A stretch of DNA of 64,000 nt from positions 1,922,001 to 1,986,000 of the forward strand of contig NZ_JAUSZR010000001.1 in NCBI RefSeq assembly GCF_030817835.1, read 5' to 3'. Made by a program: the position numbers and the translations under genes. This DNA comes from Pseudarthrobacter sp. W1I19. GTDB taxonomy: Bacteria; Actinomycetota; Actinomycetes; Actinomycetales; Micrococcaceae. Under the pieces are notes generated by a model, which was given only the letters and a program-made list of their open reading frames with translations, was not told the DNA's origin and ran no database searches. The stretch's first letter is position 1, and every line of letters begins with the position of its first letter. Shown here piece after piece: positions 6,952 to 54,844 of the stretch.

Positions 6952-7794
6952 ATGTCACGCCGGGATGCTGGAGCCGCAGGTCAGCAGGCGCGCCATGCCA
7001 GGAACCGGCTGGAGGCCACGCTGGGCGCCAGTGCCCGCGGGCTCCTCGTTGAGGAGGACGGGCCTGCCTTCGAATACCGGGGCACGCCTGGTCCCGATGC
7101 TGGCGCTGACACCGTCGGCGGTGGAAGTCATACCCAAGCCCGCGACGCCGGCCTGGCCATCCGGTGGCGCCTTGGCCTGCGGCTTGCCGTGCTCCTGGGC
7201 ATCCTTGCCGTGGCGGGGGGTGCCTGGTTCTGGTGGCAGGCGGCGTCCGGGCGGCCCGAGATCCTTCCCCTGAGTGGCGTCGGCCCGGAGACCACAGCCA
7301 AAACTGGTGAGGACGGCACATCCGCTGAGGATGGCGGGGGCGGGAGCCGGGCCGGTCCCTCGCCCGGAGCGCCCGCCGAGGCGCTGCCGGGAACGCAGGA
7401 AAGCGCGCCGGCCGGCACGGCAGTGGTGCATGTTGCCGGGGCCGTGGTGCGGCCGGGGGTGGTGCAGTTGCCGGCAGGGAGCCGTGTGCACGATGCCGTC
7501 GCGGCGGCAGGAGGAGGAAGTCCCGGCGCCGACCTGGACCGCCTGAACCTTGCTGCAATGGTGGAGGACGGACAAAAGATTCATGTCCCGCGGCAGGGCG
7601 AAGTGGTGGTGCCCGGCAGTGCCGGGGAAGCCGGAGCCCCGGACGCAGGAGACTCCGCGGACGGACGCGCGGTGCCGGGTTCAAAGGTGAACCTGAATAC
7701 GGCCGGAGTGGAGGAACTGGACGGTCTGCCGAAGGTCGGCCCCGTGCTGGCACAGCGCATCGTGGACTGGACGATTATCTTCAGAAGTAGCTGA
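6952..7794 (+). pseudogene. comEA: comEA, 5' fragment truncated by prophage insertion
   Basis: ComEA is the membrane-anchored DNA receptor of natural transformation. ATG 6952 gives an N-terminal cytoplasmic stretch, one membrane helix (LRLAVLLGILAVAGGAWFWW), a Gly/Ala-rich linker, an SLBB domain (VVHVAGAVVRPGVVQLPAGS to GQKIHVP) and the first helix-hairpin-helix motif VNLNTAGVEELDGLPKVGP. After AQRIVDW (7770) the sequence becomes unrelated and stops eight codons later. The missing second hairpin, starting VVWRKEHGPFKAVEELDAI, is found at 53,567. The break therefore removes half of the (HhH)2 DNA-binding module. A further in-frame start at 6910 is less likely. Confidence 0.92.
7762..7770 (+). 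other. attL-side crossover site of the prophage in comEA
   Basis: GTGGACTGG at the host-prophage border matches GTGGTCTGG at 53,567-53,575 except for the central base. Host comEA codons run up to this point and prophage sequence begins after it. A short imperfect core is what a large serine integrase leaves. Confidence 0.75.
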
Positions 7795-7965
7795 AACAGC
7801 AGCTACATAGGCACCACTACTTGCACCGCACCACGCCAGTAACGCCGTCGGCCGAGGGTACAGCGCAAATAAATACTATTTAAAGAAAATTCCGCGATTC
7901 TCCTGATTAATCTGGCGGCTTCGTTGTTGTACATAAGACCACTCGCAGAGAGAAAGGAGGTCAGC

Positions 7966-7998
7966 TTGATAGCCCGCATCCTCAAGCCCCCGACCTGA
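7966..7998 (+). CDS. Tiny ORF at the prophage left end
   Basis: TTG 7966 lies five bases after a very strong AAAGGAGGT and encodes ten residues (Met-Ile-Ala-Arg-Ile-Leu-Lys-Pro-Pro-Thr). The TTG-ATA start after AAGGAGG is repeated at 15,377 in front of a clear gene. The rest of 7771-8013 shows no gene; it contains an A+T-rich stretch at 7868-7890. It could be a leader peptide or a vestige of an early gene. Confidence 0.3.
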   Translation: MIARILKPPT

Positions 7999-8013
7999 GC
8001 CCAGCCCACTCAA

Positions 8014-8472
8014 GTGAGAGCGAAGAACCCCTCCATGAAAAACAGCCACTGTAAAGCAAACGCCTTAGCCGAAGAGTTCGAAAGCATCGCCCGCAAACGG
8101 GGCATAATCACGCTAAGTCTGTACCCGATACTCAGCCAGGTACTAGCGTCCCCTTGCGACTGCGGAGACGGATGTGCCGTCTCCAATTTGAAGAAGCTCA
8201 TCGCTGGATTCAATCAGCGAGTGAGGTTCGTTGACGGATTCACCATCACACCGGAACAGGGCCGCGAAGCCTTGGAACACTTCCTGTTCGATGGTGGCTC
8301 TGTAGTCAATCGCCGCAATTACATCATCGCGGTGATCTTTGAGATTGACCCGGACAGCCGACGGGGCTGGGACCAGGGAACATTTAAGCGTGAGAACCAG
8401 CGGCGGCTGCTTTTCGCTCTTGCCGAGCATCTACTGGACGACGAGACCGCGGACGATGAGGAGGCCGCGTAG
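8014..8472 (+). CDS. Hypothetical prophage protein
   Basis: First sizeable gene of the prophage left arm, up to 152 residues from GTG 8014; ATG 8035 gives 145 residues and is equally plausible because neither has a clear ribosome-binding site. It is predicted soluble, with a CDCGDGC cluster near residue 45-50 that could bind metal and a very acidic C-terminus (DDETADDEEAA). Family not recognised. It is followed by a strong terminator, so it forms a one-gene unit. Confidence 0.7.
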   Translation: MRAKNPSMKNSHCKANALAEEFESIARKRGIITLSLYPILSQVLASPCDCGDGCAVSNLKKLIAGFNQRVRFVDGFTITPEQGREALEHFLFDGGSVVNRRNYIIAVIFEIDPDSRRGWDQGTFKRENQRRLLFALAEHLLDDETADDEEAA

Positions 8473-8483
8473 TTAACAACCGA

Positions 8484-8526
8484 CGAAAGCGCCCCCTTTT
8501 CTAGAGAGGGGGCGCTTTCGTGTTTT
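8484..8526 (+). terminator. Strong rho-independent terminator
   Basis: CGAAAGCGCCCCC pairs with GGGGGCGCTTTCG, 13 uninterrupted pairs, followed by TGTTTT. It closes the transcription unit of the preceding gene. Confidence 0.9.
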
Positions 8527-8666
8527 AGCCAATAAATGAATCCATTTTTACCAAAACTTCGCCTTTTTACCCTGTTTAGTTTGACTCGGCTATTCGGGCT
8601 CTTAGCTTGAGACTTGATGTATCAATACCGGCGGAAACGGTCGGTATAAACACCAAGGAGGCAGAG

Positions 8667-8975
8667 ATGGCTGAAGAAATTGCGAGAGGCCCCAGACGGG
8701 TTTATCGCGGGGCAGATGTCCGGCGCGGCGCAGCAGTGGTTCTCCGCGAAATTCGGCGGGCAGAGATACAACGGGCTTGGGTAGCCGATTACCGCATCCA
8801 TGGAGGCAAGGCACTCGCGGCCGACGCCGGCGAGAACTACGTGGGCCTTCGCGCTGAGTTCAGCAACCACATCCAGGAAGACCCAGGTGCGGAAGCTGGC
8901 TTGGCCCTCTTCGAGGGCATGTACGTCGCCGGGGCTGCCGACATCATCGGTGACTACATGGATGGTGAGAAGTGA
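8667..8975 (+). CDS. Hypothetical prophage protein
   Basis: ATG 8667 has an AAGGAGG six bases upstream; 102 residues. N-terminal third is Arg-rich (RGPRRVYRGADVRRGAAVVL), the rest is helical and acidic with no membrane segment. Family not recognised. It starts a run of four overlapping genes (8667-9814) that must be cotranscribed and translationally coupled. Confidence 0.75.
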   Translation: MAEEIARGPRRVYRGADVRRGAAVVLREIRRAEIQRAWVADYRIHGGKALAADAGENYVGLRAEFSNHIQEDPGAEAGLALFEGMYVAGAADIIGDYMDGEK

Positions 8976-9157
8976 GCGCCGACCAACGCCAAGCGGCCGC
9001 CCGTGAACTCCGCAAGGTGAAGAAAATTATGAAGCGGCTGAGTCGACTTTACCCGGAGCTTTCCACCACCCTCAGCATCCAGGAGCGGCGATTTATCCGT
9101 TCCGTCGCCGCCGCCATCATGGTGGCCGAATCAGCAGGAGAGCGTGATGGGACGTGA
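8972..9157 (+). CDS. Small hypothetical prophage protein
   Basis: GTG 8972 overlaps the previous stop as GTGA. 61 residues, basic N-terminal half (ELRKVKKIMKRLSRLYPEL) and a hydrophobic Ala-rich C-terminus. No family recognised. Confidence 0.65.
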   Translation: MSADQRQAAARELRKVKKIMKRLSRLYPELSTTLSIQERRFIRSVAAAIMVAESAGERDGT

Positions 9158-9650
9158 CGCAGGAATATCTTTCCATGGCCTAGAGCGGAATCGGCATGGC
9201 ATCTTTTGTGACTGCCCCGCCTGCGAGGCTCAGAGAGAACTCAAGCGGATGGAGTTCAAGAAAATCGCTGTTAGAGCCGAGGCAGCCGAACTCCACAAGA
9301 GAAACGAAGCACAAGCCGCCTTTATCGCAGGGCTCGCGGGCCTGTGTTTGTTGGCTGGCATTTTCTACTGGGGAGCGCTTTGGATTTACAATACGCCGAC
9401 CTTGGCCTATTCGGCGCCTAACGAAACCGGGCTAGATCCTATCCTTTTCCTCCAGGCTTTGGGAATGGACCCCTGGGCAATCGCAGTGCCTTGCGGCGGT
9501 ACCCCTCTGCTACTCGCGGTTGCGGGTTACGTCGCTTCCGACCTCCGTTTCGAAAAGTGCTGGAAGGCGCGGGCACGGCGAAAGCTCCGTGTTCTCAGAA
9601 AAGACACCTTGGCTGATGCGAAGCAGCTGATGAAGGAGCGGCGGCGGTGA
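9144..9650 (+). CDS. Membrane protein with two predicted helices
   Basis: GTG 9144 (or ATG 9147) overlaps the preceding gene; 168 residues. The N-terminus has CDCPACEAQ, a small Cys cluster, followed by a charged helix. Two hydrophobic stretches, AAFIAGLAGLCLLAGIFYWG and AIAVPCGGTPLLLAVAGYVA, flank an external loop of about 35 residues. The C-terminus is strongly basic (RARRKLRVLRK, MKERRR). Function unknown; the coupled downstream gene is also a membrane protein, suggesting a two-part membrane complex. Confidence 0.75.
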   Translation: MMGRDAGISFHGLERNRHGIFCDCPACEAQRELKRMEFKKIAVRAEAAELHKRNEAQAAFIAGLAGLCLLAGIFYWGALWIYNTPTLAYSAPNETGLDPILFLQALGMDPWAIAVPCGGTPLLLAVAGYVASDLRFEKCWKARARRKLRVLRKDTLADAKQLMKERRR

Positions 9651-9814
9651 AGTACCTCAAGGAAATCCGCACGATGCTTCTGACCGCCGTGCTGGTGGTC
9701 GTGATGATGAACATCCTCATGGCAATCATTCAGCCCTGGCTCCCGGTAATTTTGGTCTGCCTCGTGGTGGTCACTGCTGGATGGTTCTTCTACAGCCGGG
9801 CCACCAAACTTTGA
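9647..9814 (+). CDS. Small two-helix membrane protein
   Basis: GTG 9647 overlaps the upstream stop (GTGA). 55 residues made almost entirely of two hydrophobic helices (TMLLTAVLVVVMMNILMAII and LPVILVCLVVVTAGWFFY) joined by QPW, with basic ends. Size and topology resemble small phage holins or membrane accessory proteins, but it is far from the amidase, so no function is claimed. Confidence 0.7.
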   Translation: MKYLKEIRTMLLTAVLVVVMMNILMAIIQPWLPVILVCLVVVTAGWFFYSRATKL

Positions 9815-9929
9815 CGAGCTGGTAGGGGGCTAGTTCTCGGCCATGTACCCCTACGGGTAGACGCTGATGAACGGCTTCAGCCAAAGTCTGTCGCCCTAAC
9901 CCCTTATAAGCCAATCAAATTGTGAACTA

Positions 9930-10075
9930 AAAGAGAGAGGCGAGGATTTGCCGAGAATCATTACCGGCCGAAGCCTTAGTCGTACTCGTATAGTCACCTC
10001 GCAACGTCTTTTGCCATAAAGGCCGCAAAGCAGACCTCACCTAACGTCCCTTACCTTTTTGGATACTCTCTCTTT
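9930..10075. repeat. Long-range inverted repeat in an A+T-rich intergenic region
   Basis: AAAGAGAGAG (9930-9939) and its exact complement CTCTCTCTTT (10,066-10,075) flank about 126 bases with no gene. The whole 9815-10,103 gap is non-coding, A+T-rich and directly precedes the TraD-like ATPase. Candidate transfer or replication origin, or a regulatory loop; inference only. Confidence 0.45.
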
Positions 10076-10091
10076 CAAAGCGCAATAAGTT

Positions 10092-10097
10092 CATAAT
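10092..10097 (+). promoter_or_regulatory. CATAAT -10 element of the ATPase gene
   Basis: CATAAT lies six bases before ATG 10,104, so the transcript is probably leaderless. No convincing -35 is present. The same hexamer precedes several other prophage module starts. Confidence 0.5.
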
Positions 10098-10103
10098 GCG
10101 CTT

Positions 10104-12278
10104 ATGGAAGTTATTTATCCAGTCCAAATTACTTTTACCGATATAGCCATTCCCTTTACCCAAGTCGCAGTCACAGGGCTTGGTTTAGTCGGAGGTATCG
10201 CCCTCATCATGAACGCCGCTCAAAGGCTGGCCGACCGCCAGCGAAGAACCTTCGAGATTTTCTTTCCCTCCACCATGGGCCATGACCAGGTGCTCGCCTT
10301 CATCCGTGCCCTGTCCGGACTTCCTAAACCTAAGTTCATGCAGCCCATCTACGCCGTGAGCTTCGAGCGCTACGCCGACCAGAACGGCGAGCGTTATTTC
10401 ATGCATACTCCTGGGCGCATTGCCGCCCGGCTTGATGAGCTCTTCTATGAGATTGTCGACGGCTCCATGGAGAAAGTGGAGCTGGAGGACGACCCGATCG
10501 CCACAACGAAGTGGCAGGCGGCCACGGAGCTGGCTATGCCGGGCATGAGCATTTTGAGGTCTCTCCGCATCATGGATGTGCAGGGAACATCCCACAGCAT
10601 GAACGCCCAATTCAAAAGCCTGAACCCTGGTGAAGCGACAGTGCTTCAGTGGTGCCTCTTCCCACAGCGTCCTAGAACCTCTGAGAGCGCCGATAAGGAC
10701 AAACTGGCCGACCATACCTTTTCAGCCATTGCGAGGCTTGGAGCGACCGGAGAATACGCGCAGGGCATGGTCAAAGACCTGTCGTCCGTCTTCAAGTCCG
10801 TGGAGGCTCCACAGGCCCGCTTCCAGCGCCGCCTCATGCCGAACGTGGGGGAGCGTATCAACCTACGGGCCAGTACGGCCGGCTTCCCCATCCTCATAAA
10901 CGCCAAAGAGTTCTCCGCCTTGATGGGCTGGCCGCTGAACGGCAGCGGAGCCCGGCGGGCCAAGCGCATCGCGCCTACCGTGATGCATGACAGTGACGGC
11001 ATCGTCATCGGCACGAGCAACACCCCGAAGATGCAGAACCGGCGCGTGGCCATACCGGAGGCCGCTTTGACTGTCCATACCTGGGTATGTGCGCCCTCCG
11101 GCCAAGGCAAATCAGTGCTGCTTCACAATATGGCAGCGCAGATTATGGATAGGAATATGGGGCTTGTCCTCCTAGATCCGAAAACCGATTTAGCCACTGC
11201 CGTCTTAAGTTCCGTTCCGCTTCATCGGGAGCGTGATGTCATATGGTTCAACCCGTTAGATACGGATAGACCCATCGGCCTGAATGTGCTTTCAGGCAGC
11301 GACCCGGAGCGCACCACTTCACATGTGGTCGGTATGTTCAAAGCCCTTAGCGGAGATACTTGGTCGGCACAATTGCAACGTGTTTTGAGAAATGCCGTTA
11401 TGACGGCTGCGCTAAATGGTTTGTCCCTCTATGACGTCAAGCAATTATTGGTAAATAAGGAATATCGCACCGCCCAAGTCCGCCGGCTGAACCGCAACAT
11501 CCACCCGGACATCATCCAAGAGTGGCGGTGGCTGGACGACAAAGCCGATATGACCGTGGACAGTGCCGTGAACCGCCTTGACGCCTTCCTGGGCTCCCGC
11601 ATGATCCGCAACATCGTCAGCCAGAAGGATGGTCTGGACTTCGATGAGATAGTCCGCAAGCGGAAGATACTCCTGGTTCCCTTGAGCGAAGCCCACATGG
11701 GCTCCACCAACGCCTCGGCCCTGGGACAGCTCATCTTCGACCTGGTCTGGGATGCGACCTTGCGTAGACCCCCGGAACACCGGGAGCCCAACGTCATGAT
11801 GGTCGATGAGTTCCAGATGTTCTGCGAAATGATGAACACGACGAAGGCCGACCCCTTCGCCCTGGCCCGCTCCTATGGCCTGGGGCTGATGGTCGCCAAC
11901 CAATACGCCGACCAGCTCCCGAAGGCCGTCCAGCAAACCCTGAGCAAGAACGCCCAGTCCCAAATCGTCTTCCGGCTCGCCAGCGACGACGCCAAGTCCA
12001 TGCAACAGACCTTCGCCCCGTTGACCCACGACGACCTAGCCAACCTCCCGCGGTACACCGTGGCCGCCAAGCTCATGAGCAGCAGCGGAAATGCTCCCGT
12101 AGTGACCTTGAAGACTCCACCACCACCGAAAGCTACTGGTGCGGCCCAGGAAGTGGTGCAGTACTCCAGAGAGAAATATGGCCGGCCAGTTATGGAAGTG
12201 GAAGCTGATTTGCTGACTAGACACAAGGCACCGGAACAGAAGACTCGGCCCCACATCGGAAGCATCCCAAATGAGTAA
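10104..12278 (+). CDS. TraD/TraG/HerA-like DNA-pumping ATPase
   Basis: 724 residues from ATG 10,104, with no ribosome-binding site and a -10 box close upstream. A membrane helix lies near residues 15-32 (FTQVAVTGLGLVGGIALIMN). Walker A is GQGKS around residue 333 and Walker B is MMVDEF around 565, followed by GLMVANQYADQLPKAVQQTL and SQIVFRLASDDA, the sensor region shared by VirD4/TraD coupling proteins and HerA helicases. Such proteins move DNA through a hexameric ring, classically in conjugation. It is followed by a replication-relaxation protein, a pairing known from plasmids and conjugative elements, yet here both lie in a siphovirus-like prophage. It may act in replication or DNA partition of the phage. 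Phage packaging is covered by a separate terminase. Confidence 0.85.
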   Translation: MEVIYPVQITFTDIAIPFTQVAVTGLGLVGGIALIMNAAQRLADRQRRTFEIFFPSTMGHDQVLAFIRALSGLPKPKFMQPIYAVSFERYADQNGERYFMHTPGRIAARLDELFYEIVDGSMEKVELEDDPIATTKWQAATELAMPGMSILRSLRIMDVQGTSHSMNAQFKSLNPGEATVLQWCLFPQRPRTSESADKDKLADHTFSAIARLGATGEYAQGMVKDLSSVFKSVEAPQARFQRRLMPNVGERINLRASTAGFPILINAKEFSALMGWPLNGSGARRAKRIAPTVMHDSDGIVIGTSNTPKMQNRRVAIPEAALTVHTWVCAPSGQGKSVLLHNMAAQIMDRNMGLVLLDPKTDLATAVLSSVPLHRERDVIWFNPLDTDRPIGLNVLSGSDPERTTSHVVGMFKALSGDTWSAQLQRVLRNAVMTAALNGLSLYDVKQLLVNKEYRTAQVRRLNRNIHPDIIQEWRWLDDKADMTVDSAVNRLDAFLGSRMIRNIVSQKDGLDFDEIVRKRKILLVPLSEAHMGSTNASALGQLIFDLVWDATLRRPPEHREPNVMMVDEFQMFCEMMNTTKADPFALARSYGLGLMVANQYADQLPKAVQQTLSKNAQSQIVFRLASDDAKSMQQTFAPLTHDDLANLPRYTVAAKLMSSSGNAPVVTLKTPPPPKATGAAQEVVQYSREKYGRPVMEVEADLLTRHKAPEQKTRPHIGSIPNE

Positions 12279-12407
12279 ATTCAGTGTTCACAGTCGAACT
12301 TGCAGGGCGTTGATTGTCCAGTTGAACCAGGTATTGATTCGGCTCACAGAATATCCCCCTACTTCCCCCGTAAACGCGCGGATGTCACGGCGGGCGGTAC
12401 TTTCTAA

Positions 12408-13091
12408 ATGAATAGTTTTTCTGCTCTATCTTCTACTCAACGGTCCGTCCTCCAGACCGTCACCCAATTCCGGCAGCTCACCACCTCCCAACTCCGGCGT
12501 ATCCACTATCGGTCTGGCACCCCTGACGGCCAACGTGTGCGCTCCTGTAGGCACTTGAAGCGTCTTACCCAACTTGGGCACCTGAAGCGTATGTGGGGGG
12601 CTTACAACGGCTCTGCGGAGTACGTCTACCAACTCGCCTCTACTAAAGCCCGGACTCCCGAGCCTCACACCTTGGACATAGCGGAAACCTTCGTCCGCCT
12701 CCTGGAGGCCGGCGCACGGGACATGACCTTCCGCACGGAGCCCTGGTGCCATACCCGCGTCGGCCACGTCTTACTAAAACCAGATTTCTATCTGGAGGTC
12801 GGGGGAGCCTGCTACTTCGGTGAGGCAGATCGAGGCGTGGAGTGGGAGGCCCAGCTGACCGCCAAGATGCGGCGCTACATCCAGGCAATTGATTCCGGAG
12901 CCTGGCCTGACGATAGGGCGTTCCCGTTGGTGCTGTGGCTGGTGCCGGATGAGGCCCGCCGGAAGTACATCGAAGACATCATTCACAAGCTGAATGAGAA
13001 AGAACTGTTCAGGGTGGTCCTGTTCAGTGAAGCGGCAGAAAGGATATGCCATGCAGTACTGCCAGAAGTGCGAGATGGAATACGAAGCTGA
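12408..13091 (+). CDS. Replication-relaxation family protein
   Basis: 227 residues from ATG 12,408. The N-terminal 80 residues are a winged helix (LQTVTQFRQLTTSQLRRIHY, then RVRSCRHLKRLTQLGHLKRM), and the rest resembles a PD-(D/E)XK-like core with KPDFYLEV and YFGEADRG supplying acidic residues. The layout matches the replication-relaxation family of Gram-positive plasmids and phages, proposed to nick or melt origin DNA. The 129-base gap before it carries no gene. It follows the TraD-like ATPase, and its end overlaps the next small Cys-rich gene by 41 bases. Confidence 0.75.
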   Translation: MNSFSALSSTQRSVLQTVTQFRQLTTSQLRRIHYRSGTPDGQRVRSCRHLKRLTQLGHLKRMWGAYNGSAEYVYQLASTKARTPEPHTLDIAETFVRLLEAGARDMTFRTEPWCHTRVGHVLLKPDFYLEVGGACYFGEADRGVEWEAQLTAKMRRYIQAIDSGAWPDDRAFPLVLWLVPDEARRKYIEDIIHKLNEKELFRVVLFSEAAERICHAVLPEVRDGIRS

Positions 13092-13269
13092 GGACGGTTG
13101 CCTGTGTGCCGTGTACCGGGTGCTGATGAAGCAGGGTCATTACAGATCGGTGCCGCCGCAATGGATCACGGACTGGTATGAGGACAAGCTCTACTGCGAT
13201 AGCTGCCGCACGAGTTACTGGGCGGGGACGGCCTGCGCCTGCTACTCCGGATCGGTGGTGCTGGCTTGA
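13051..13269 (+). CDS. Small Cys-rich putative zinc-binding protein
   Basis: ATG 13,051 lies inside the end of the previous gene and follows AGAAAGGA. 72 residues with CQKC near the N-terminus, then CLC, and later YCDSC and CAC, which could make one or two zinc ribbons. Function unknown; coupled translation with the replication-relaxation gene suggests a partner role. Confidence 0.65.
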   Translation: MQYCQKCEMEYEAEDGCLCAVYRVLMKQGHYRSVPPQWITDWYEDKLYCDSCRTSYWAGTACACYSGSVVLA

Positions 13270-13532
13270 GCAAGCAACTAGAAGAGCTGACTGAGCAGTT
13301 GGCCTACGTGCAACATCGAATCCGTTGGATTGAAGGGGAACTTCGAGGCGATGAAATACCTCTTGGAATACCGGAGAAGGTACTGAAGGACGACCTGCGC
13401 AATCTGCAGGATGAGGAGCGGCGACTAGTCACGCTAATAACTGCCGTCGAAGACTGCGAGCACAGCGAAGTAGAAGACACCGGCGGCCCGGACGGCTCGC
13501 AAATCTGTCTTGAGTGCGGCAAAGTGCGCTGA
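13266..13532 (+). CDS. Small coiled-coil protein with C-terminal zinc-ribbon-like tail
   Basis: TTG 13,266 overlaps the previous stop (TTGA). 88 residues: a long charged helix (QLEELTEQLAYVQHRIRWIE and on to LQDEERRLVTLI) then a tail with C, H, CLEC ligands (EDCEHSEVED and QICLECGKVR). No family recognised. Confidence 0.65.
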   Translation: MSKQLEELTEQLAYVQHRIRWIEGELRGDEIPLGIPEKVLKDDLRNLQDEERRLVTLITAVEDCEHSEVEDTGGPDGSQICLECGKVR

Positions 13533-13534
13533 CC

Positions 13535-13741
13535 ATGCCAGAGTTCGAATACATAGTTGGATTTACACCGCAAGGCAGCCGCAAGAAGCTTTACGTCAGG
13601 GGAATCGTGTATGTCCGCAGCAACAGCGAGCTCCTGGCCAGGGAGCGGGCTATCCAGAAAGTCAGCGAACGCTACGGCTTCAACCTGAAGGATGAGTACA
13701 CCTGCGTGGTGGTGCCGGTACCGGAATCCGAGGAAGCGTAA
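13535..13741 (+). CDS. Small hypothetical prophage protein
   Basis: ATG 13,535, two bases after the upstream stop. 68 residues with alternating beta-like pattern (EFEYIVGFTPQGSRKKLYVR, TCVVVPVPES). No family recognised. Confidence 0.6.
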   Translation: MPEFEYIVGFTPQGSRKKLYVRGIVYVRSNSELLARERAIQKVSERYGFNLKDEYTCVVVPVPESEEA

Positions 13742-13828
13742 TCGAATGGAACGCTAAGAAGACGGACTATTCAGACTGCTCTCGGCCCAGTAAGGTTTCC
13801 GCTACCTATCCCCAGCTAGGAGTATGCA

Positions 13829-14017
13829 ATGACAGCACGGATTTCAACCGTTTCCGCAGAATCAGCCAAGTACCTCTGCGAACAAGTGAACCGTATTATC
13901 CGCGGCTACGAGACCAGCCATGTCAGCATCCAGGTCGTCACCACCGTGGTGCCCGACAACCGCAGTCAGACTGGTTCCAAAATCATTTACGAGGCGTTTA
14001 TAGTTCATCCGGCATAG
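13829..14017 (+). CDS. Small hypothetical prophage protein
   Basis: ATG 13,829 is preceded by CTAGGAGT. 62 residues, one helix then a beta hairpin (SHVSIQVVTTVVPDN, KIIYEAFIVHPA). Last plus-strand gene before the divergent or convergent minus-strand pair at 14.0-15.0 kb. Confidence 0.6.
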   Translation: MTARISTVSAESAKYLCEQVNRIIRGYETSHVSIQVVTTVVPDNRSQTGSKIIYEAFIVHPA

Positions 14018-14021
14018 CCTG

Positions 14022-14474: not shown

Positions 14475-14500
14475 TTCCGTTCATTTCTAGGTCACGAGGG

Positions 14501-47658: not shown

Positions 47659-47662
47659 CCAC

Positions 47663-47690
47663 TTGTAATTACTAGCCCAAGCTACATACT
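47663..47690 (+). promoter_or_regulatory. Predicted promoter TTGTAA-16-CATACT for the lysis genes
   Basis: TTGTAA (47,663-47,668) and CATACT (47,685-47,690) in a short A+T-rich gap before the genes at 47,716 and 47,918. Confidence 0.5.
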
Positions 47691-47715
47691 GAAATTACAT
47701 AAGAGGATTCAACCA

Positions 47716-47901
47716 ATGTTTGGGCGCCGCCGCAAGAAAGATCAAGAAGCCCTCATAAATGAAATACTTCGTGTGCAGCGGCTCCAGGGCGACGCCCATT
47801 CCGCCATCATGAACCAACAGGCCGCGATGATTACCCGGGTCGATAAGGGCTTTGAGGAAATCCACAAGCGCATCTCGTTCAATACCCGTTTGAAACCATA
47901 A
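47716..47901 (+). CDS. Small hypothetical protein before the endolysin
   Basis: ATG 47,716 after AAGAGGA; 61 residues, basic start (FGRRRKKDQEALINEILRVQ) and helical. No membrane segment. Unknown. Confidence 0.6.
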   Translation: MFGRRRKKDQEALINEILRVQRLQGDAHSAIMNQQAAMITRVDKGFEEIHKRISFNTRLKP

Positions 47902-47917
47902 ATAGGAGACCCCATGC

Positions 47918-48904
47918 GTGAAGAATTATCTCGCCGAAGCTATCGACCTGACAGGGGATAGCTACCTCAACCCCGTTCCAGCCGTATACGACAACGGCCA
48001 GCACCCCCGCAACATCAACCAGATAACTTCGATCTCAATCCATCACGACGCCAGCTTCCGAGAGCATGACTACGATTCAGTGGCCCGCTATCACTCCGAA
48101 GCCGCCGGCCATTACAGCCGGCTAGGACCGGGCCTCCAGTACCACTACAAGATTGACAATGTGGGCCAGATATTTCAGATCCGCCCGCTGACGACGTGGC
48201 TGTACTCTGTCGGTTCCTTTGAGAACGTGACGACCATGGCCATATGCCTAGACGGCAACTTTGAGTTCCAGCAGCCCACCCGTGAGCAGTTGGAGGCGCT
48301 GTACCAACTCATCGAGAACCTGTGCACGCAGCATCCGGAGTTTCCCGCCACCTGGCCGGACGTCCGTTCGCACAATGACTTCAGCGCGACAGCCTGCTCT
48401 GGCGCCAACTTGCGTGACCGTATCCTCCCCATCCAAGACCAGGTTTCTGCTCAGGCTCAGCTTCTAAACGTAGGCGAGTACGACTGGCCCACCTACCAGC
48501 CGGGCTACCAAGTTCCCACGCCGCCGCCTCCCGCAGTTGCCGTACCGGTAAAGACTCCAGATCCCATTGTTCCCGCCTCAACCGTTCCTACGCCTCCTGT
48601 CGTCCCCGCTACGCCGCCTCCGATTGTCGAGCCGGACAAACAGACACCTTGCGCATCAGAGGCACCTTCACCGGCTCCTACGCAGCCCACAACTCCCAAT
48701 TGGATGCAGCAGCTGCGTGACTTCTTCGGCACCACCCAAGGAAGGACGGTTCTGGGCGTCCTCGCCACTGGCATCGCACCAGCCCTCATGTACCTTCAAC
48801 ACTTCCAGACTGACAACGCCCTATTGGCTGCTGCCGTCCTCGCCGCCGTGACTTTGCTGAATACCGTCAAAGACGCGCTCAACCCTAACGTCCCGAATAA
48901 ATAA
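47918..48904 (+). CDS. N-acetylmuramoyl-L-alanine amidase endolysin with C-terminal membrane helices
   Basis: GTG 47,918; 328 residues. The Amidase_2/PGRP domain (residues 1-175) cuts the bond between muramic acid and the stem peptide. Zinc ligands are likely H42 or H43 in ISIHHDASF, H152 in VRSHNDFS and C160 in ATACSG. A Pro/Thr/Val linker (residues 195-265) leads to a C-terminal segment with two hydrophobic helices (TVLGVLATGIAPALMYL and NALLAAAVLAAVTLLNTV), so the enzyme may be membrane-tethered or carry a built-in holin-like module. ATG 47,914 in another frame shares the ribosome-binding site and would give a 15-residue peptide. Confidence 0.88.
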   Translation: MKNYLAEAIDLTGDSYLNPVPAVYDNGQHPRNINQITSISIHHDASFREHDYDSVARYHSEAAGHYSRLGPGLQYHYKIDNVGQIFQIRPLTTWLYSVGSFENVTTMAICLDGNFEFQQPTREQLEALYQLIENLCTQHPEFPATWPDVRSHNDFSATACSGANLRDRILPIQDQVSAQAQLLNVGEYDWPTYQPGYQVPTPPPPAVAVPVKTPDPIVPASTVPTPPVVPATPPPIVEPDKQTPCASEAPSPAPTQPTTPNWMQQLRDFFGTTQGRTVLGVLATGIAPALMYLQHFQTDNALLAAAVLAAVTLLNTVKDALNPNVPNK

Positions 48905-48914
48905 GGAGGCTCCC

Positions 48915-49079
48915 ATGGCCCTATCGCAGGAAGACATCAACCGCGTAAACGAAGAAATCAAAGCCAACGGTCTGTATAAGGCCTTCAAGCTGGTGTTTGA
49001 TATTCTCAGCCGTCCGCTAATCGCACTTCTCAATAGCCCCAAAGTAAAGGCGCTAGTCGACAAGTTGTTTTCGCGCTAA
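48915..49079 (+). CDS. Small hypothetical protein after the endolysin
   Basis: ATG 48,915 after AAGGAGG; 54 residues, amphipathic (LYKAFKLVFDILSRPLIALL). Followed by a terminator, so it closes the lysis unit. Possible holin-like partner, unproven. Confidence 0.65.
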   Translation: MALSQEDINRVNEEIKANGLYKAFKLVFDILSRPLIALLNSPKVKALVDKLFSR

Positions 49080-49114
49080 AGTCGAAAGTGGAGTTCAGTG
49101 TAAGTGCAGGTACT

Positions 49115-49143
49115 AGCCCTGGCAGAAATGCCGGGGCTTTTTT
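49115..49143 (+). terminator. Rho-independent terminator of the late operon
   Basis: AGCCCTGGC pairs with GCCGGGGCT (one G-U) and is followed by six T. Confidence 0.85.
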
Positions 49144-49220
49144 GTTGCCCTTTTAACAAAAGCGGATTCGGTTCATAGTAAGGGCGTCCCACCCGCACAT
49201 TGAAAGCTAGGAGCTGATAA

Positions 49221-49382
49221 ATGGACCCTACTGAAACCCTCAGGCAACTCCGCCAATGTATTGCCAACGAACCGGATAATACCGAGCGGATCATCGAGCT
49301 TTTCGAAGCGCTCGATACGTGGATCACCCGCGGCGGATTCCTGCCGGCCCAATGGTCTGCCACCGCCCGCGGCGGCTGGTAA
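49221..49382 (+). CDS. Small hypothetical protein
   Basis: ATG 49,221 after CTAGGAGC; 53 residues, acidic helical (TLRQLRQCIANEPDNTERII) with a Trp/Gly-rich end. Preceded by TTTAAC and CATAGT 16 bases apart. Unknown. Confidence 0.6.
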   Translation: MDPTETLRQLRQCIANEPDNTERIIELFEALDTWITRGGFLPAQWSATARGGW

Positions 49383-49464
49383 TTCCCCTCCCAAACAAAC
49401 GGGGGAATTGAAACCCCCATCTCAAGCGGCGCTTCCGTGCGCCCAAAAACAGATAGGTACTGTC

Positions 49465-50445
49465 ATGGCCCACGAAGTAGAAAACATGATGTCCGTACGG
49501 GAAACCCCTTGGCACGGGCTCGGCAACGTCCTTCCCGCCTACCCGAAGTCCAAGCAAGAGCTGCTGGAAGCGGCCGGCCTGGACTGGGAAGTGGGGGAGT
49601 TGCCCGTTGAAGTTCCCCTGCCTAACGGTCAGCGCCTCATGGCCCTTGACAAGAAGGGCATCGTCCGGCTCTCGGATAACACGCTGCTGTCCATCATGGG
49701 CGGCACGTACACCCCGATTCAGCCGGCGCAATTGGTGGACTTCGCGTTCACCCTGCTCGACGTGACGCAAAACGAGTTCGAACAAGCCGAAGGTGAACCG
49801 CCCATCCTGTTTGAAACAGCGATGAGCCTCTCCGGCGGACGGGTAAATACCCTGATGGCGAAAGTGCCGAAGAGCATCCAAATCGGCGGCAACGACCCCA
49901 TCAACCTTTACCTGGGTTTCGTGAATTCTCACGACGGGAGCCTGCGCTTCGGTGTCCATGCGACCCCCATCCGGGAAGTCTGCATGAATACCCTGAACCT
50001 CGGTCTCAAAGCCGCGGTCCAGTCCTGGAGCGTCAAGCACACTGCTTCGGCACTCAACTCCATCGATGAGGCCCGGCGGACGCTGAACCTCACCTGGAAG
50101 TACGCCGACGAGTTCGAGTCCGAGATGAACGACCTGCTCGACCAGGACTTCACCAAGCGCCAGTTTGAGGACATGGTCCGCAAACTCTTCCCGAAGACCG
50201 CCAAGGAAACTGCCCCGTTCTCACGGGACCAGTACGCCATGATCGGCCTGCTGGAATCGTCACCGACTATCGATGACGGCCTTCGCTACACCAAGTACGG
50301 CGCACTCAACGCTGTAACGGAGTTCCACGATTGGAACACCCGCTACAACGAGGGCGACGTTTCCATGGAGGAAAAGCGGACTCTCAATGTCCTGTTCGGA
50401 CGGGCCAAGCAGGCCGCCGACAAGACCTTTGGATATCTTGCCTAA
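49465..50445 (+). CDS. DUF932 phage/plasmid-like protein
   Basis: ATG 49,465; 326 residues. MMSVRETPWHGLGNVL, MGGTYTPIQPAQLVDFAFTL, NLYLGFVNSHDGSLRFGVHA, IREVCMNTLNLGLKAAVQSW, FGRAKQAADKTFGYLA are the blocks of the DUF932 family (TIGR03299), common in phages and plasmids and thought to act in DNA metabolism. It lies beyond the lysis genes, in a short post-late cluster. Confidence 0.87.
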   Translation: MAHEVENMMSVRETPWHGLGNVLPAYPKSKQELLEAAGLDWEVGELPVEVPLPNGQRLMALDKKGIVRLSDNTLLSIMGGTYTPIQPAQLVDFAFTLLDVTQNEFEQAEGEPPILFETAMSLSGGRVNTLMAKVPKSIQIGGNDPINLYLGFVNSHDGSLRFGVHATPIREVCMNTLNLGLKAAVQSWSVKHTASALNSIDEARRTLNLTWKYADEFESEMNDLLDQDFTKRQFEDMVRKLFPKTAKETAPFSRDQYAMIGLLESSPTIDDGLRYTKYGALNAVTEFHDWNTRYNEGDVSMEEKRTLNVLFGRAKQAADKTFGYLA

Positions 50446-50504
50446 AACCTTCATCTACCTTGCCCGTCATGGCCTAACTTTTTGATTGAAAGGGGTGAGC
50501 ATCG

Positions 50505-50636
50505 ATGGCCGATGACTCAGAAGTACTGGAATGGGTTTCCCCTCGCAGACAGCGGGAAATCGACAACCAGGCAGCGTTTATGCGCTACCTCCTGGAACGT
50601 GAAGACGTTCCCGCAGAAGGGGGTGAGAAACGATGA
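50505..50636 (+). CDS. Small hypothetical protein
   Basis: ATG 50,505 after AAGGGGTGAG; 43 residues (WVSPRRQREIDNQAAFMRYL). Overlaps the next gene as ATGA. Confidence 0.55.
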   Translation: MADDSEVLEWVSPRRQREIDNQAAFMRYLLEREDVPAEGGEKR

Positions 50637-50797
50637 ACGATTACGTTCCTCGGCCCCACGAAGCCTACGACTCACACTGGGTCATCAAGCGCGACCTCTC
50701 GAACATAATCGAGAAGTTGCGGCAGAAAGAGCCCACCACTGAGAATCGGGAATCCCTCGCAATTTACGAGGAGATTCTGCAAAGGTTCTCCACCTAA
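50633..50797 (+). CDS. Small hypothetical protein
   Basis: ATG 50,633 overlaps the upstream stop; 54 residues, helical (VIKRDLSNIIEKLRQKEPTT). Followed by a terminator. Confidence 0.55.
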   Translation: MNDYVPRPHEAYDSHWVIKRDLSNIIEKLRQKEPTTENRESLAIYEEILQRFST

Positions 50798-50806
50798 CAA
50801 CGCCCG

Positions 50807-50828
50807 CCCCCAGCGATATGGGGGTTTT
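50807..50828 (+). terminator. Short terminator
   Basis: CCCCC pairs with GGGGG around eight bases, followed by TTTT. Confidence 0.6.
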
Positions 50829-50865
50829 AACTTGTGTTAAATTGAAATCATAAGAGATTTCATCT

Positions 50866-51288
50866 ATGCCAAAGTCGCCGGCCGAATTAGAAGAAGCTGT
50901 GATGCTGAAGATTGCGGCTCACCTGCAAGAGAATTGGCCTAATGCCGTAGCTCACGTCGATTACGGTTCCGGCCTGAAGATGACCATGCGACAGGCTAAG
51001 CGACAGAAAGCGCTAAACCCGCGCCGTGGACACCCAGACCTCGTTATCTACGAAGTTCGCGGCAGCTTCATCGGTCTAGCTGTCGAATTGAAGCGGGATG
51101 GCGTGAATATCTATAAGCGGGATAAGACGACTCCGACCACCGAACACATCGCTGAGCAGCGGGACTACTTGAGGCTGCTATCTGCCCGTGGTTGGTACAC
51201 GGCCTTCGCGGTCGGCGCTCCTGACTGCCTGCAACTCATCGACGACTATTTGTCGGGCAAACTTCAACCAGAAAACGACCAAGACTAG
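50866..51288 (+). CDS. VRR-NUC domain nuclease
   Basis: ATG 50,866; 140 residues. NPRRGHPDLVIYE and GLAVELKRDG give the D...ExK core of the VRR-NUC nuclease family found in many phages near replication and terminase genes. Acts on branched or damaged DNA by analogy. Preceded by TTTAAC-17-CATAAG. Confidence 0.85.
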   Translation: MPKSPAELEEAVMLKIAAHLQENWPNAVAHVDYGSGLKMTMRQAKRQKALNPRRGHPDLVIYEVRGSFIGLAVELKRDGVNIYKRDKTTPTTEHIAEQRDYLRLLSARGWYTAFAVGAPDCLQLIDDYLSGKLQPENDQD

Positions 51289-51382
51289 CCCGACTTTCTA
51301 ATCTAGTTTCCCCCTAATCAGCATTCTTTCCTAACCAGAAAACGAACTGACGGCAAGGGCCTCTCCGGGGCCTCATTAGAGC

Positions 51383-51982
51383 ATGGATAATACACTCTAC
51401 GAGGCCACAGTTGCCTACACCGCCGATAGCAATTTGCCCTTTCATCACCTGCCATGGGACAAGGTTCGCCTTGACCCCGCCAAAGGTCGACGTATTGCCG
51501 ATGCTTTTGATGAAGCGCCGCGGGAACTGACGCACTTTGCCAAAGTCTCCTACGCGGCATTCCGAAAGGGCATTAGAAGGCAATACGACTACCTGACGCG
51601 GATACTCAGCTACGACGTGGAAGTGGTCGATTACGATCCCTACAAGGAATCTGCCGAACTGTTTGCCGACTTGGCACAGTACAAGCTCAGGGTCTTTTCC
51701 ACCGAAGCGTCTGACAATCCGCACCCACTGTTGAGCAACAAAGATCACGACGCTTTCAGGGCCGTCCACGACGCCTTCGGACACGGTGCAATCCAGGCTT
51801 CATTCGGTCCCAATGGCGAAGAAGCGGCCTGGCTGAAGCACTCTCAAATGTTCTCACCTCTAGCAAGGCCAGCACTGACCACAGAAACCCGCGGCCACAC
51901 CTGCGTCTTTTTCTTCAAGAACGGCGGGCGGTACTTCTCCCGGAATCGAGCCATACTCTTACCCCGCGAGTTTTGGCCATGA
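51383..51982 (+). CDS. Conserved-type phage protein, His-rich possible metalloprotein
   Basis: ATG 51,383; 199 residues. The middle NPHPLLSNKDHDAFRAVHDA, FGHGAIQASFGPNGEEAAWL and MFSPLARPALTTETRGHTCV carry regularly placed His, Asp and Glu that could bind metal. No membrane segment. I have seen this type of protein in actinophages but cannot name it. It is the last confident plus-strand gene of the prophage. Confidence 0.7.
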   Translation: MDNTLYEATVAYTADSNLPFHHLPWDKVRLDPAKGRRIADAFDEAPRELTHFAKVSYAAFRKGIRRQYDYLTRILSYDVEVVDYDPYKESAELFADLAQYKLRVFSTEASDNPHPLLSNKDHDAFRAVHDAFGHGAIQASFGPNGEEAAWLKHSQMFSPLARPALTTETRGHTCVFFFKNGGRYFSRNRAILLPREFWP

Positions 51983-52167
51983 CGCCAGACTCGCCCAGGA
52001 GGGGGCGAGGGCTCTCCGACGCTCCTGCTCTCTCACCGGCCCGACTCGCCAAGATCGCCCGGCTCCTCAATCTGTCCGCAGAACCATCTCGTAGTAGTCA
52101 GGGTCAAACCGCTTCGGAGCTGAAAAATCGCGTTTGCAATCAATCAGTACGCAGGATAATTACGTAA
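51979..52167 (+). CDS. Possible small ORF between the last phage gene and the integrase
   Basis: ATG 51,979 overlaps the previous stop (ATGA). 62 residues, Arg/Ser/Leu-rich with a helix (ALSPARLAKIARLLNLSAE). It overlaps the convergent integrase gene by 28 bases. Coding status uncertain. Confidence 0.4.
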   Translation: MTPDSPRRGRGLSDAPALSPARLAKIARLLNLSAEPSRSSQGQTASELKNRVCNQSVRRIIT

Positions 52168-53531
52168 TAGTAGGGGTCGAATTTTTTGGGAGCCGTCACG
52201 GGTTTCGGATACACCTTTACCGCCTGAACCACCTCAAACAGAATTCCCCGCTTCTGAGGCAGCGTGAGTCCCGCCCACTTCTGCCTCACCCCAGCGCCGA
52301 CCGGAGCTTTCATAGTCTGGCGGCGCTTTTCTTGTGCCCGCTCACCCTTGAGGCCATTCAGCACGGCTTCCTTGCGTGCCTGGGCCGTGAAGAACACGGC
52401 GTCGGAGATTCGGCCGGCCGTCCATTCGTCAATCAGGGCGGACAGAGACTGCTCCGCGTCCGCAATCTCTCTGTCGAGCGCGTTGTCGTCTGATGCACGT
52501 CCGACAGGTTCAAGGCTTTGCCGTTCCAGATACTTCAGCAATTCTTCCTCGATGTACTCATCCAGCGCCCTGGCCTTGCGTCTGGTCCGGCCGCACCCTC
52601 GATCGTTGGGGCAGCGGTACTCCGGTACTCCCTTGGCAACAGCCCCGCTCATCCTCGTTCCGCAAGGACATGCCAGCAGCCCGCTAAGGAGGTACTTCCG
52701 ATCTACCCGGCCACCGTTGGCTTGACGGCTTTTGTCTGTCAGCAGGCTCGTTAGCTGCTCTCAGGTATCCACCGAGACTATGGGCTCCCAGATAGCTTTC
52801 ACCGGCGAACCATCTTCACCGATGAGGACCGACCCTTTGTAGGAGCGCAGTCCGGCGATGCGGGGATTGAGCAGGATCGAGCGCAGCACCGTCCGGTTCC
52901 ACTTCGTACTCTTGCCCGGCGTCGGGTACTGGCCGTCGATTGACTTGCAGATACCTATCAGCGTCTCGCCGAGAAGAATCCGCTTGGCCGCGTCTTGGAT
53001 AACCGCCGCTTCCTCCGGCACCACCGTTACGTTGTCCCGCTCGTATCCATAGGGCCGGGCACCACCACCGGCTACTTTGCCTTGCTGAGCACGTTGCAGT
53101 TGAGCCCTGGCGACGCGGCGGGCTGTATCGGCGGAGCTCTTATTCGCCACGTTCACTAGGAGCCGAGCCAGGAAGCGGCCGTCCGCGGTGGACAGGTCTA
53201 TCTCCCCGGACACGGTCGCGAAGACCAGTCTACGTTTGCTTTCATACAGGTCGATGAGCCGTTCCAGCTGCTTGGGCTGACGGGCGATTCGATCCACGTC
53301 GTAGCAGGCGACGCCATGAATGGTTCCGGCTTCCAGGTCAGTCAGCAGCTCTTCCCAGGCCGGCCGATCCACCGACCTTTTATAGGCGCTGAGGTTTTCA
53401 TCGGCGTAGACTTTGGCCACTTCCCAGCCCAGGCGCTTGCACAGGGCGGTGGAGTCGTGGCGCTGGCGTTCGATCCCCAGGCCTGTGCCTTCATCGTCCA
53501 AGCTGATCCGCAGGTACACGCCGACCTTCAT
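52140..53531 (-). pseudogene. Large serine integrase interrupted by an in-frame TGA
   Basis: From ATG 53,531 the N-terminal catalytic domain reads MKVGVYLRISLDDEGTG (Ser10 nucleophile), GVACYDVDRIARQPKQLERL and DLSTADGRFLARLLVNVANK; the recombinase DNA-binding domain follows to EPIVSVDT. There TGA (plus-strand 52,761-52,763) replaces the expected TGG for Trp257, and the same frame continues EQLTSLLTDKSRQANGG, the zinc ribbon (LLACPCGTRM, PNDRGCGRTRRK) and a coiled-coil end. Intact it would have 463 residues. A single G to A change explains it. Lies 35 bases from attR, as expected for the integrase that made the insertion. Confidence 0.9.
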
Positions 53532-53566
53532 ATCCCAAGGCTACGGCTAGGGCACCTAAACAGATA

Positions 53567-53575
53567 GTGGTCTGG
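53567..53575 (+). other. attR-side crossover site of the prophage
   Basis: GTGGTCTGG begins the returning comEA reading frame and matches attL GTGGACTGG at 7762-7770 in eight of nine bases. Confidence 0.75.
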
Positions 53576-53677
53576 CGCAAGGAACACGGGCCCTTCAAAG
53601 CAGTGGAGGAACTTGATGCCATTGACGGCGTCGGCCCAAAGATGCTTGAGGCCCTGCTCCCGCTGTTGACCATATGA
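53567..53677 (+). pseudogene. comEA: comEA, 3' fragment
   Basis: In-frame codons VVWRKEHGPFKAVEELDAID followed by GVGPKMLEALLPLLTI and TGA form the second helix-hairpin-helix of ComEA, missing from the fragment at 6952. It has no start codon and is separated from its 5' part by about 45.8 kb. Confidence 0.93.
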
Positions 53678-53689
53678 GGCGAAGGGAAG

Positions 53690-54844
53690 ATGCGGTGGCG
53701 ATGTCGAGGACCTGGCGCTGTTATGCGTAGCCGGACACCGGGGACGCGGTCCAGCCCGTGGAGCCGGTACGTAGAGTCAGCCGTCCGGGGGTATGCGACG
53801 CCACCGGATGGTGTTGGGCGCCTGGGATCGGGGGAGGCCGCGCATGGGGCCCGCGGGGCTACGGGACAGGAGCCCGCGGCGGCGGGCAGGCTGGGCTTCC
53901 GGACCTTGCCTCGGGGCCGTGGCCCCAGCGGATTCATACGGAAGCACTGGACTGCGCAGTCCGCCCGCTTTGCCGCCGGCAACAAGAAGGCGCGGGACGC
54001 AGATTCTGTGGAGGAAGCACCGCGACGGCGGACCGACATACGGCTGGCACTGCCTGCGGCCTTCGTCTGGGGTGCATCGATTGCAGGGCTCTGGCTGCCT
54101 CCCATTGCACTGGCGGCCCTGTGCTGCATATTGCTGGTGCTTGCGGCCATGCTGCTGCACAGGACCCGGCGGAACAGGACCTGGCGGATCCGCAGGATGA
54201 GGTCAGTAACTGGAGGCCCGCGGAAACCTGCGCGGCGGAGTTTCCTTACCACCACAGCGGTTGCGCTCCTGCTGGCAGCCACTGCGGCAGCGCACTCGGC
54301 GGTTGCGTCCAGCCAGCGTCATGAAGGCCCGCTGGCGGCTGCGGTCGCGTCAGGCAGGTCCGTGGTGGCGGTAGTGGAAGTGGCAGGAACGCCCCGGGCC
54401 TTGAACCCGCCGAACCAGGCTGGTACGCCCTCGCGCTGGTCGATCGCTGTATGGACCCGGGACGTCAGTACAGGAGGCGTCCTGCTGCGCACCCGGGCCC
54501 AACTCTTGATAACAGGCGGCGGCGCCTGGGGAACTGTGGTGCCCGGACAACTGGTCCGCGCAACGGGGAAGCTCCGGTCTCCGGACCCCGGGCGGGAGGA
54601 AGCAGGCATCCTGACGGCGTCCTCGGGGCCGGGAAAACCCACCGATTCGCCGTTCCTGCAGGAATCAGCGAAGGAACTGAGGGAACGCTTTGTCTCAGCA
54701 GCCTCGTTCCTCGCCCCGGATCCGAGGGGCCTGCTTCCCGGAATGGTCACCGGGGACACCAGCGCGCTGGATGAGGGCCTGGAGAGTGCAATGAAAACTG
54801 TAGGTATGACCCATTTGACCGCTGTCAGCGGCCAGACCGCATGA
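53690..54844 (+). pseudogene. comEC: comEC, 5' fragment truncated by a second insertion
   Basis: ComEC is the membrane channel for incoming DNA in transformation. ATG 53,690 opens 384 residues: a long Arg/Gly-rich start, two membrane helices (WGASIAGLWLPPIALAALCC, TTTAVALLLAATAAAHSAVA), the DUF4131-like extracellular domain, and the start of the competence domain, GLLPGMVTGDTSALDEGLES and MTHLTAVSG. The family then continues ANC..., but here it becomes QTA and stops. Full ComEC proteins have 700-800 residues and many more helices, so the channel is lost. The 3' part is not in the window. Confidence 0.92.
54827..54838 (+). other. Left border of a second mobile element, inside comEC
   Basis: Host comEC codons end at about 54,832 (Val-Ser-Gly). 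From there to 64,000 nothing is comEC. The 54,845-55,056 stretch shows no gene I can support. The other border lies beyond the window. Confidence 0.75.

What the first reader, a model, noticed from the sequence alone, without database searches (positions are those of the whole stretch)
6952..54844. Two adjacent DNA-uptake genes, comEA and comEC, are each broken by a different mobile element
comEA is split at 7770/53,567 by a 45.8-kb prophage and comEC, 12 bases downstream of comEA, is cut at about 54,832 by a second island that continues past the window. Phages are known to target competence genes (A118 in Listeria comK, TP901-1 in comGC, Tn1207.3/phi1207.3 in pneumococcal celB/comEC), but both uptake genes in one operon hit at once would be striking. 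It would end transformation and could stop the cell from curing its own elements by recombination.
Basis: partly seen in the sequence, partly recalled or inferred. Interest (0 to 1): 0.9.

Follow-up and report, generated by a model that had tools for sequence, protein, structure and literature searches.

The report
Competence genes as mobile-element landing sites
In this soil bacterium a virus sits inside one DNA-uptake gene and a row of three mobile islands sits inside the gene next to it, and several related species carry mobile DNA at the same spot of that second gene, so the spot looks like a recurrent landing site for mobile DNA.

Summary
comEA is split at 7770/53,576 by a 45.8-kb prophage with a large serine recombinase (LSR) gene at its right end. 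comEC is split after 54,831; its 3' half lies 117.7 kb on in the same single contig, and no further ComEC-domain match was found in the genome. The comEC insert is three tandem islands (18.9, 84.2, 14.6 kb). Joined flanks give an open comEC frame with no base lost.

The double hit is probably coincidence; comEC is the larger finding. Of 202 genomes of the genus with a ComEC match, 13 (this one included) are split at the same codons, HLTAVSG^AN, and 2 about 20 bp upstream. Seven more keep a full ComEC domain plus a displaced 3' copy, in 6 starting at the crossover. Joints have LSR anatomy, and some inserts encode an LSR beside the joint. Other genera and one genome of another order use the site too. 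comEA is uninterrupted in the 12 other VSG-split genomes.

Enrichment of competence genes among LSR targets is published. Apparently new: this comEC site in Actinomycetota, arrays of 227 kb, and integrase-less islands beside an apparently restored comEC. Loss of transformation is inferred.

The parts
6910..7770 (+). comEA 5' fragment (ORF continues into prophage to 7794)
   Evidence: left joint CTGG 7767-7770
7771..53575 (.). 45.8-kb prophage inserted in comEA
   Evidence: terminase, portal, head protease, major head protein, minor tail protein by Pfam/PHROGs; joints
25056..26612 (+). prophage terminase large subunit
   Evidence: phrog_2, 1.2e-38
26629..28032 (+). prophage portal protein
   Evidence: Portal_Mu 1.9e-45; phrog_113 3.2e-69
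28894..30069 (+). prophage head maturation protease
   Evidence: Mu-like_Pro 4.6e-21; phrog_328 1.3e-21
30456..31391 (+). prophage major head protein
   Evidence: phrog_1005 2.1e-70
52140..53531 (-). large serine recombinase of the comEA prophage, interrupted by one in-frame stop (N-terminal part 52761-53531, C-terminal part 52140-52652)
   Evidence: Resolvase 3.4e-23 and Recombinase 4.8e-8 in the N-terminal part, no Pfam match in the C-terminal part; frame seen
53576..53677 (+). comEA 3' fragment (HhH tail)
53690..54831 (+). comEC 5' fragment, ending at HLTAVSG with crossover dinucleotide GG (54830-54831); ORF runs on to 54844
   Evidence: PF03772 positions 1-31
54832..64000 (.). first part of island I (contig 1976832-1995770, 18.9 kb) of the three-island array in comEC
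   Evidence: joints at contig GG 1976830-31, 1995769-70, 2079970-71, 2094562-63
54832..55087 (+). conserved left end of the islands (about 250 bp, repeated at the start of islands II and III)
   Evidence: 93% and 80% identity, alignment
55467..57260 (-). island I Mrr-like nuclease (candidate defence gene)
   Evidence: Mrr_cat 7.3e-8; PADLOC PDC-S02 2e-6
59240..59491 (+). island I excisionase-like HTH_17 protein with a homologue in the island of G521
   Evidence: HTH_17 6e-10; shared cluster

Best explanation
The codons for the conserved ComEC motif HLTAVSG^AN are an attB for large serine recombinases. An element circle with arms of the ACCCACC...AAC...GG and ...GGTGGGT type recombines at the GG dinucleotide, cutting comEC after VSG without losing a base. 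More elements then pile up at the same site, giving tandem arrays; here three islands, none with a recognised integrase, total 117.7 kb. Independently, a prophage with another serine recombinase inserted in the HhH codons of the neighbouring comEA. Shown: both insertions, codon-exact recurrence, arm motifs, LSR genes beside the joint in some relatives. Inferred: that the LSR makes the joints, that the cell cannot be transformed, and that the second of the two hits was neutral because competence was already lost.
For: Both comEC halves in one contig, joined frame open. Left joint right after HLTAVSG in 12 of 12 other VSG-split genomes of the genus. Right joint read in 9 of those 12: ACCCACC arm in 5 of 9 (G477, G497, G457, G437, G440), a one- or two-base variant in 3 (G428, G349, G522). 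LSR directly after the joint in G440, G399 and G365 (Pfam domains) and, in another genus, G186; an interrupted LSR after the joint in G120. LSR inside the arrays of G428 and G457 and on the insert side of the comEC 5' half in G349 (its 3' half is on another contig). LSR next to comEC in G516 and G417 at a site about 20 bp upstream. In 8 of 18 named loci found with the G440 LSR a comEC 3' half starting at residue 376-379 lies beside the LSR (5) or within 3.4 kb (3). In G651, from another order, an LSR follows the same codons.
Against: The islands in this genome have no recognised LSR, and their left arm lies 48 bp rather than about 25 bp from the crossover, so their own mobilisation is unexplained. 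Of the 9 right joints read, G365 shows no ACCCACC-type arm (it has another LSR group); in G522 no left arm is visible. Right joints of G404, G435 and G399 were not read. In six of the twelve (G349, G404, G497, G522, G399, G435) the two halves are on different contigs; G522 and G435 also hold extra partial ComEC matches, and G437 is 7% contaminated and has a stop in its 3' half. Of 30 LSR-homologue loci fetched in the family only 4 lie at a comEC half, so the wider LSR family uses other sites too. No excision or circle was observed.
Confidence: 0.85

Rival explanations
1. Assembly artefact: unrelated stretches were joined at 54,832 or 7770/53,576.
For: None found; raw reads were not available.
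Against: One contig of 4.81 Mb; the comEC halves join in frame without loss; the same codon-exact left joint recurs in 12 other genomes of the genus and in other genera.
Confidence: 0.02
2. Regulated gene interruption, as recalled for phage A118 in Listeria comK: the elements excise when competence is needed.
For: Insertion is precise; the halves of both genes remain open when joined.
Against: The comEA prophage integrase carries an in-frame stop; no integrase was recognised in the three islands; 118 kb of tandem islands would have to leave together.
Confidence: 0.05
3. Coordinated strategy: the elements were selected to disable both uptake genes so that the cell cannot cure them by transformation.
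For: Published models and examples of mobile elements in competence genes (PMC4774983, PMC12637031, passages seen); recurrence at comEC.
Against: A conserved coding motif is also simply a reliable attB. comEA is not interrupted in the 12 other VSG-split genomes. No functional data.
Confidence: 0.25
4. Tn7/Tn6022-like transposition, as in comM.
For: Repeated motifs at both ends.
Against: The joints share only GG, no longer target duplication; LSRs sit at the joint of several relatives. A search for Tni/Tns genes was not run.
Confidence: 0.03

Closest known systems
Large serine recombinase elements with competence-gene targets (Durrant et al. 2022, PMC10083194; passages seen)
   Same: LSR elements disrupting conserved coding sites; [quoted passage not shown]
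   Different: comEC has 0 occurrences in its main text; its supplement could not be read and may list it. Arrays and displaced 3' copies do not appear in the passages seen
Elements in streptococcal celB/comEC (Tn1207.3/phi1207.3 recalled; 'transposons disrupt comEC' in pneumococcus, PMC12637031, passage seen)
   Same: A mobile element breaks the ComEC pore gene
   Different: Different phylum; here many elements share one codon-exact site. Whether the streptococcal site is the same codon was not tested
AbaR and other islands in comM (PMC11472951, passages seen)
   Same: Competence gene as hotspot for diverse islands, some with defence genes
   Different: Tn7-like elements in part; comM loss lowers rather than abolishes transformation
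Islands that restore their target gene (tRNA, icd, prfC; recalled)
   Same: A gene 3' part beyond the insertion point is present twice, flanking the island
   Different: The completing segment is about 1 kb, in four loci runs on into holA codons with different end points, and no full LSR of the G440 family is left in the island

Membership tests
LSR-mobilised integrative element (comEC inserts as a group) | Large serine recombinase gene (Resolvase + Recombinase domains) in the element | tested here: met
   Met for G440, G399, G365. Not met for the three islands of this genome, which are filed as probable derivatives only
LSR-mobilised integrative element (comEC inserts as a group) | Crossover within a 2-bp core, no loss and no longer duplication of the target | tested here: met
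   Joints in this genome share only GG; not measured base by base in the other genomes
LSR-mobilised integrative element (comEC inserts as a group) | attP of about 50 bp with inverted arms around the core (definition recalled) | tested here: inconclusive
   Arms about 25 bp either side in G440 and, on the sides read, several others; in this genome the left arm is at 48 bp
LSR-mobilised integrative element (comEC inserts as a group) | Excision and integration activity | not testable with these tools
   needs bench work
Prophage (comEA element) | Terminase, portal, head and tail genes | tested here: met
Prophage (comEA element) | Intact integrase | tested here: not met
   in-frame stop; probably unable to excise alone
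Active-lysogeny switch (A118-comK type, recalled) | Functional integrase able to restore the gene | tested here: not met
Gene-restoring island | Element-borne 3' part completing the target gene | tested here: inconclusive
   Displaced 3' copies in 7 loci, but in 4 loci the completing segment includes holA codons, so chromosomal origin is likely

The most novel reading that the evidence does not exclude
The ComEC HLTAVSGAN codons are a shared landing pad for at least two divergent LSR groups across Micrococcales and beyond. Islands accumulate there into arrays of 227 kb or more. Lineages that keep an island but need DNA uptake regain comEC by receiving a comEC 3'-holA' chromosomal segment that overwrites the integrase end of the island: a repair that also locks the island in place.
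Probability: 0.4. Interest if true: 0.75.

Novelty: new variant of a known kind. Interest (0 to 1): 0.62.

Why it matters
If right, about one in nine species representatives of this genus (22 of 202: 13 split at VSG, 2 split just upstream, 7 with displaced 3' copies) bears a footprint of mobile DNA in the DNA-uptake pore gene. That makes the conflict between transformation and mobile elements testable in Actinomycetota, with broken and apparently restored genes in related species. It also points to a set of serine integrases with one defined, conserved candidate attB.

Tried and rejected
Tyrosine integrase origin: PF00589 has three matches in the genome, none in the array. Shared recombinase: all-against-all BLAST of the called genes of nine fetched loci plus this array gave no shared recombinase cluster (my own simple gene caller). 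My motif scan for recombinases missed the LSR of G365 and flagged a capsid gene, so it counts for nothing. G442 has its ComEC domain cut by a short stretch that looks like a sequencing adapter (recalled), G303 a frame break; neither counted. G418 has a partial match 15-266 and was not pursued. G516 and G417 looked VSG-split by coordinates; sequence showed a break about 20 bp upstream next to an LSR. Of 20 handles re-searched, fragments in G598, G572, G536, G537, G573, G542, G808, G835, G653 and G002 were not pursued. Coordinates of the 380 class-level matches were only partly listed, so no class-wide rate is given. For the 'restored' loci the alternative that an intact strain captured the right flank of an island strain gives the same gene order and is not excluded; G454 shows an identity jump near VSG, G483 and G521 do not.

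Full report
Observation. The window is contig position 1,922,001-1,986,000 of a one-contig, 4,812,144-bp genome. comEA is open from 6910 and leaves its family after 7770; its last codons lie at 53,576-53,677. The joints share CTGG and the joined frame gives a normal HhH tail. comEC begins 12 bases later and leaves its family after HLTAVSG at 54,831. The Pfam ComEC domain matches positions 1-31 there (E 6.6e-4) and 29-267 at 2,094,559 (E 2.7e-32), with no other match at E 0.001 or better in the genome. Flanks at 1,976,831 and 2,094,564 join to a 715-aa open frame through VSG|ANCSLVLG. Both genes are interrupted in this assembly; a second comEA was not looked for.

What the inserts are. The comEA insert (7771-53,575) is a prophage: terminase, portal, head protease, major head protein and minor tail protein match Pfam or PHROGs. 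Its integrase, next to the right joint, is a large serine recombinase with an in-frame stop. The comEC insert is 117,732 bp. A conserved 250-bp left end recurs at 1,995,771 and 2,079,972, and right ends share ACCCACC, AAC and TTCACTGG; the joints are GG at 1,976,830-31, 1,995,769-70, 2,079,970-71 and 2,094,562-63. So it is three islands in tandem of 18.9, 84.2 and 14.6 kb. Ten genes of islands I and III (8 and 2) were scanned: an Mrr-like nuclease, an Abi_C/AbiJ-like protein and a DUF488 protein matching PADLOC candidate PDC-M19A suggest defence; a Phd-like match is below cut-off and the Avs2 and LmuA matches are weak; two have only DUF matches (DUF6994, DUF6308) and two have no match in either library. 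Ten genes of island II are metabolic, transport and regulatory, including two Beta-lactamase-family hydrolases and a kinase. No tyrosine integrase and no match to two LSR queries lies in the array.

A recurrent site. PF03772 was sought in 206 genomes of the genus, one per species; 202 have a match and their coordinates were read. Thirteen, this one included, are split at domain position about 31. In 12 of the 12 others the left joint falls right after HLTAVSG. Right joints were read in nine of the 12, not in G404, G435 and G399: the ACCCACC arm is exact in five, varies by one or two bases in three, and is absent in G365. In six of the 12 the halves are on separate contigs. G522 and G435 hold further partial ComEC matches, and G437 has a stop in its 3' half. 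Two more genomes, G516 and G417, break about 20 bp upstream, next to an LSR spanning nearly the whole query. Insert sizes on one contig are 8.4 kb (G365), 31 kb (G477), 99 kb (G440), 118 kb (this genome), 194 kb (G457) and 227 kb (G428); in G437 the halves lie near the two ends of a 4.70-Mb contig, about 298 kb apart if that contig is circular. G428 has internal arm-GG junctions at local 183,106, 201,747 and 214,930, so at least four units (a fourth pattern hit at 203,624 looks unrelated). The same pattern found no internal junction in G457, G440 or G477.

Mechanism. In G440 and G399 an LSR of 517 and 516 aa starts within about 35 bp of the joint, behind a GTGGGT arm; Pfam finds Resolvase and Recombinase domains. 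In 390 genomes of the family, 44 have a homologue at E 1e-20 or better, mostly distant; of the 30 loci fetched, four lie at a comEC half: G323, G120 (LSR interrupted), G365 and G186. With the G440 LSR the species-level genome collection gave 18 loci; in 8 of 18 a comEC 3' half starting at residue 376-379 is adjacent (5) or within 3.4 kb (3): Cryobacterium (2), Microbacterium (2), Curtobacterium, Leucobacter, Ca. Lumbricidophila and an unnamed Microbacteriaceae bacterium. There the LSR faces the comEC 3' side, the reverse of G440. The other ten show no comEC match within the fetched flanks; six of these are on contigs with the lengths of G349, G404, G428, G457, G437 and G497, where the LSR would lie deep in the array. 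A second LSR group (G365, G186; 66% alike) uses the same codons, and G651, from another order, is split there with an LSR 38% identical to that of G365. The G365 insert also has a capsid gene. Phage records hold only homologues of the G440 LSR under 60% identity, the best about 35%.

Loci with comEC apparently restored. Seven loci read in full (G521, G483, G470, G275, G456, G454, G465) have a full ComEC domain, an island, and a second comEC 3' copy just before a 338-aa gene (316 aa as called in G454) that I take for holA (name recalled). In six of seven the copy starts at the crossover behind an ACCCACC arm (ACTCACC in G521); in G483 it starts about 35 bp later without such an arm and is 100% identical over 746 bp. 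G447 and G468 look similar but were read only in part. In G454 the completing 3' half is 88-97% identical to G468 per 100-bp bin for 800 bp, the 5' side 35-74%, with the change near VSG, and a 28-residue LSR tail follows; its 5' half is frame-shifted, so that gene is not intact. In G521, G447, G470 and G454 the completing segment runs on into holA codons and ends at different places. A tblastn with the G440 LSR finds no full LSR in these seven, only tails in G454 and, weakly, G521; G521 has a small resolvase-like gene (by eye). This suggests that a chromosomal segment replaced the integrase end of the island; capture of island DNA by an intact strain is not excluded.

Both genes at once. comEA is continuous across the HhH site in the 12 other VSG-split genomes; in G437 the alignment breaks there by a frame change, without an insertion. 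Among 30 fetched loci with homologues of the comEA-side LSR, only this one is in comEA. The double hit is so far unique and most simply a common hit (comEC) plus a rare one (comEA).

Relation to the literature. LSR target genes are reported as strongly enriched in DNA competence genes (PMC10083194, passages). Conflict between transformation and mobile elements, and elements in comM, comYC and comEC, are published (PMC4774983, PMC12637031, PMC11472951, passages). Deletion of comEC abolishes transformation in Micrococcus luteus (PMC4322843, passages), and comEC is named among its most frequently recombining genes (PMC7890812, passages). Six searches (one search listed 15 of 21) showed in titles and abstract starts no paper on comEC as an LSR site in Actinomycetota; most listed papers were not opened and the Durrant supplement was not readable. 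Names for G349, G428, G457, G437, G404 and G497 (Pseudarthrobacter or Arthrobacter strains) rest on equal contig lengths. Only P. siccitolerans was looked up in the taxonomy; other order and family placements of named genera are recalled.

Noticed in passing
10104-12278 +: A VirD4/TraG-like coupling ATPase (T4SS-DNA_transf 1.4e-9; phrog_5156 1.3e-50, function unknown) inside the comEA prophage, beside head and tail genes.
   Followed up: partly
54832-54880 and left ends of islands II and III: Left ends of this island type carry about 22 extra bp between the crossover GG and a second GG, moving the GGTGGGT arm to 48 bp; copies in G365 and G349 show the same. Could be a relic half-site; unexplained.
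   Followed up: partly
L079 1645-10076: 8.4-kb element in comEC of G365 with LSR, capsid gene and a long tape-measure-like gene (no Pfam match): a mini-prophage or satellite.
   Followed up: partly
L107, L245-L248, L258: LSR oriented towards the 3' side of comEC, opposite to G440, although the crossover GG is not palindromic.
   Followed up: no
L207, L213: A second insertion point about 20 bp upstream in the same comEC motif, beside LSRs about 50% identical to that of G365.
   Followed up: partly
L260: In Arthrobacter sp. Hiyo8 an LSR start abuts what looks by eye like a reversed copy of the left-end sequence of this island type.
   Followed up: no
G365 C22 136-189 kb (L013, L016): G365 has two copies of this island type's ends about 110 kb or more from its comEC, so these islands may also use another target.
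   Followed up: no
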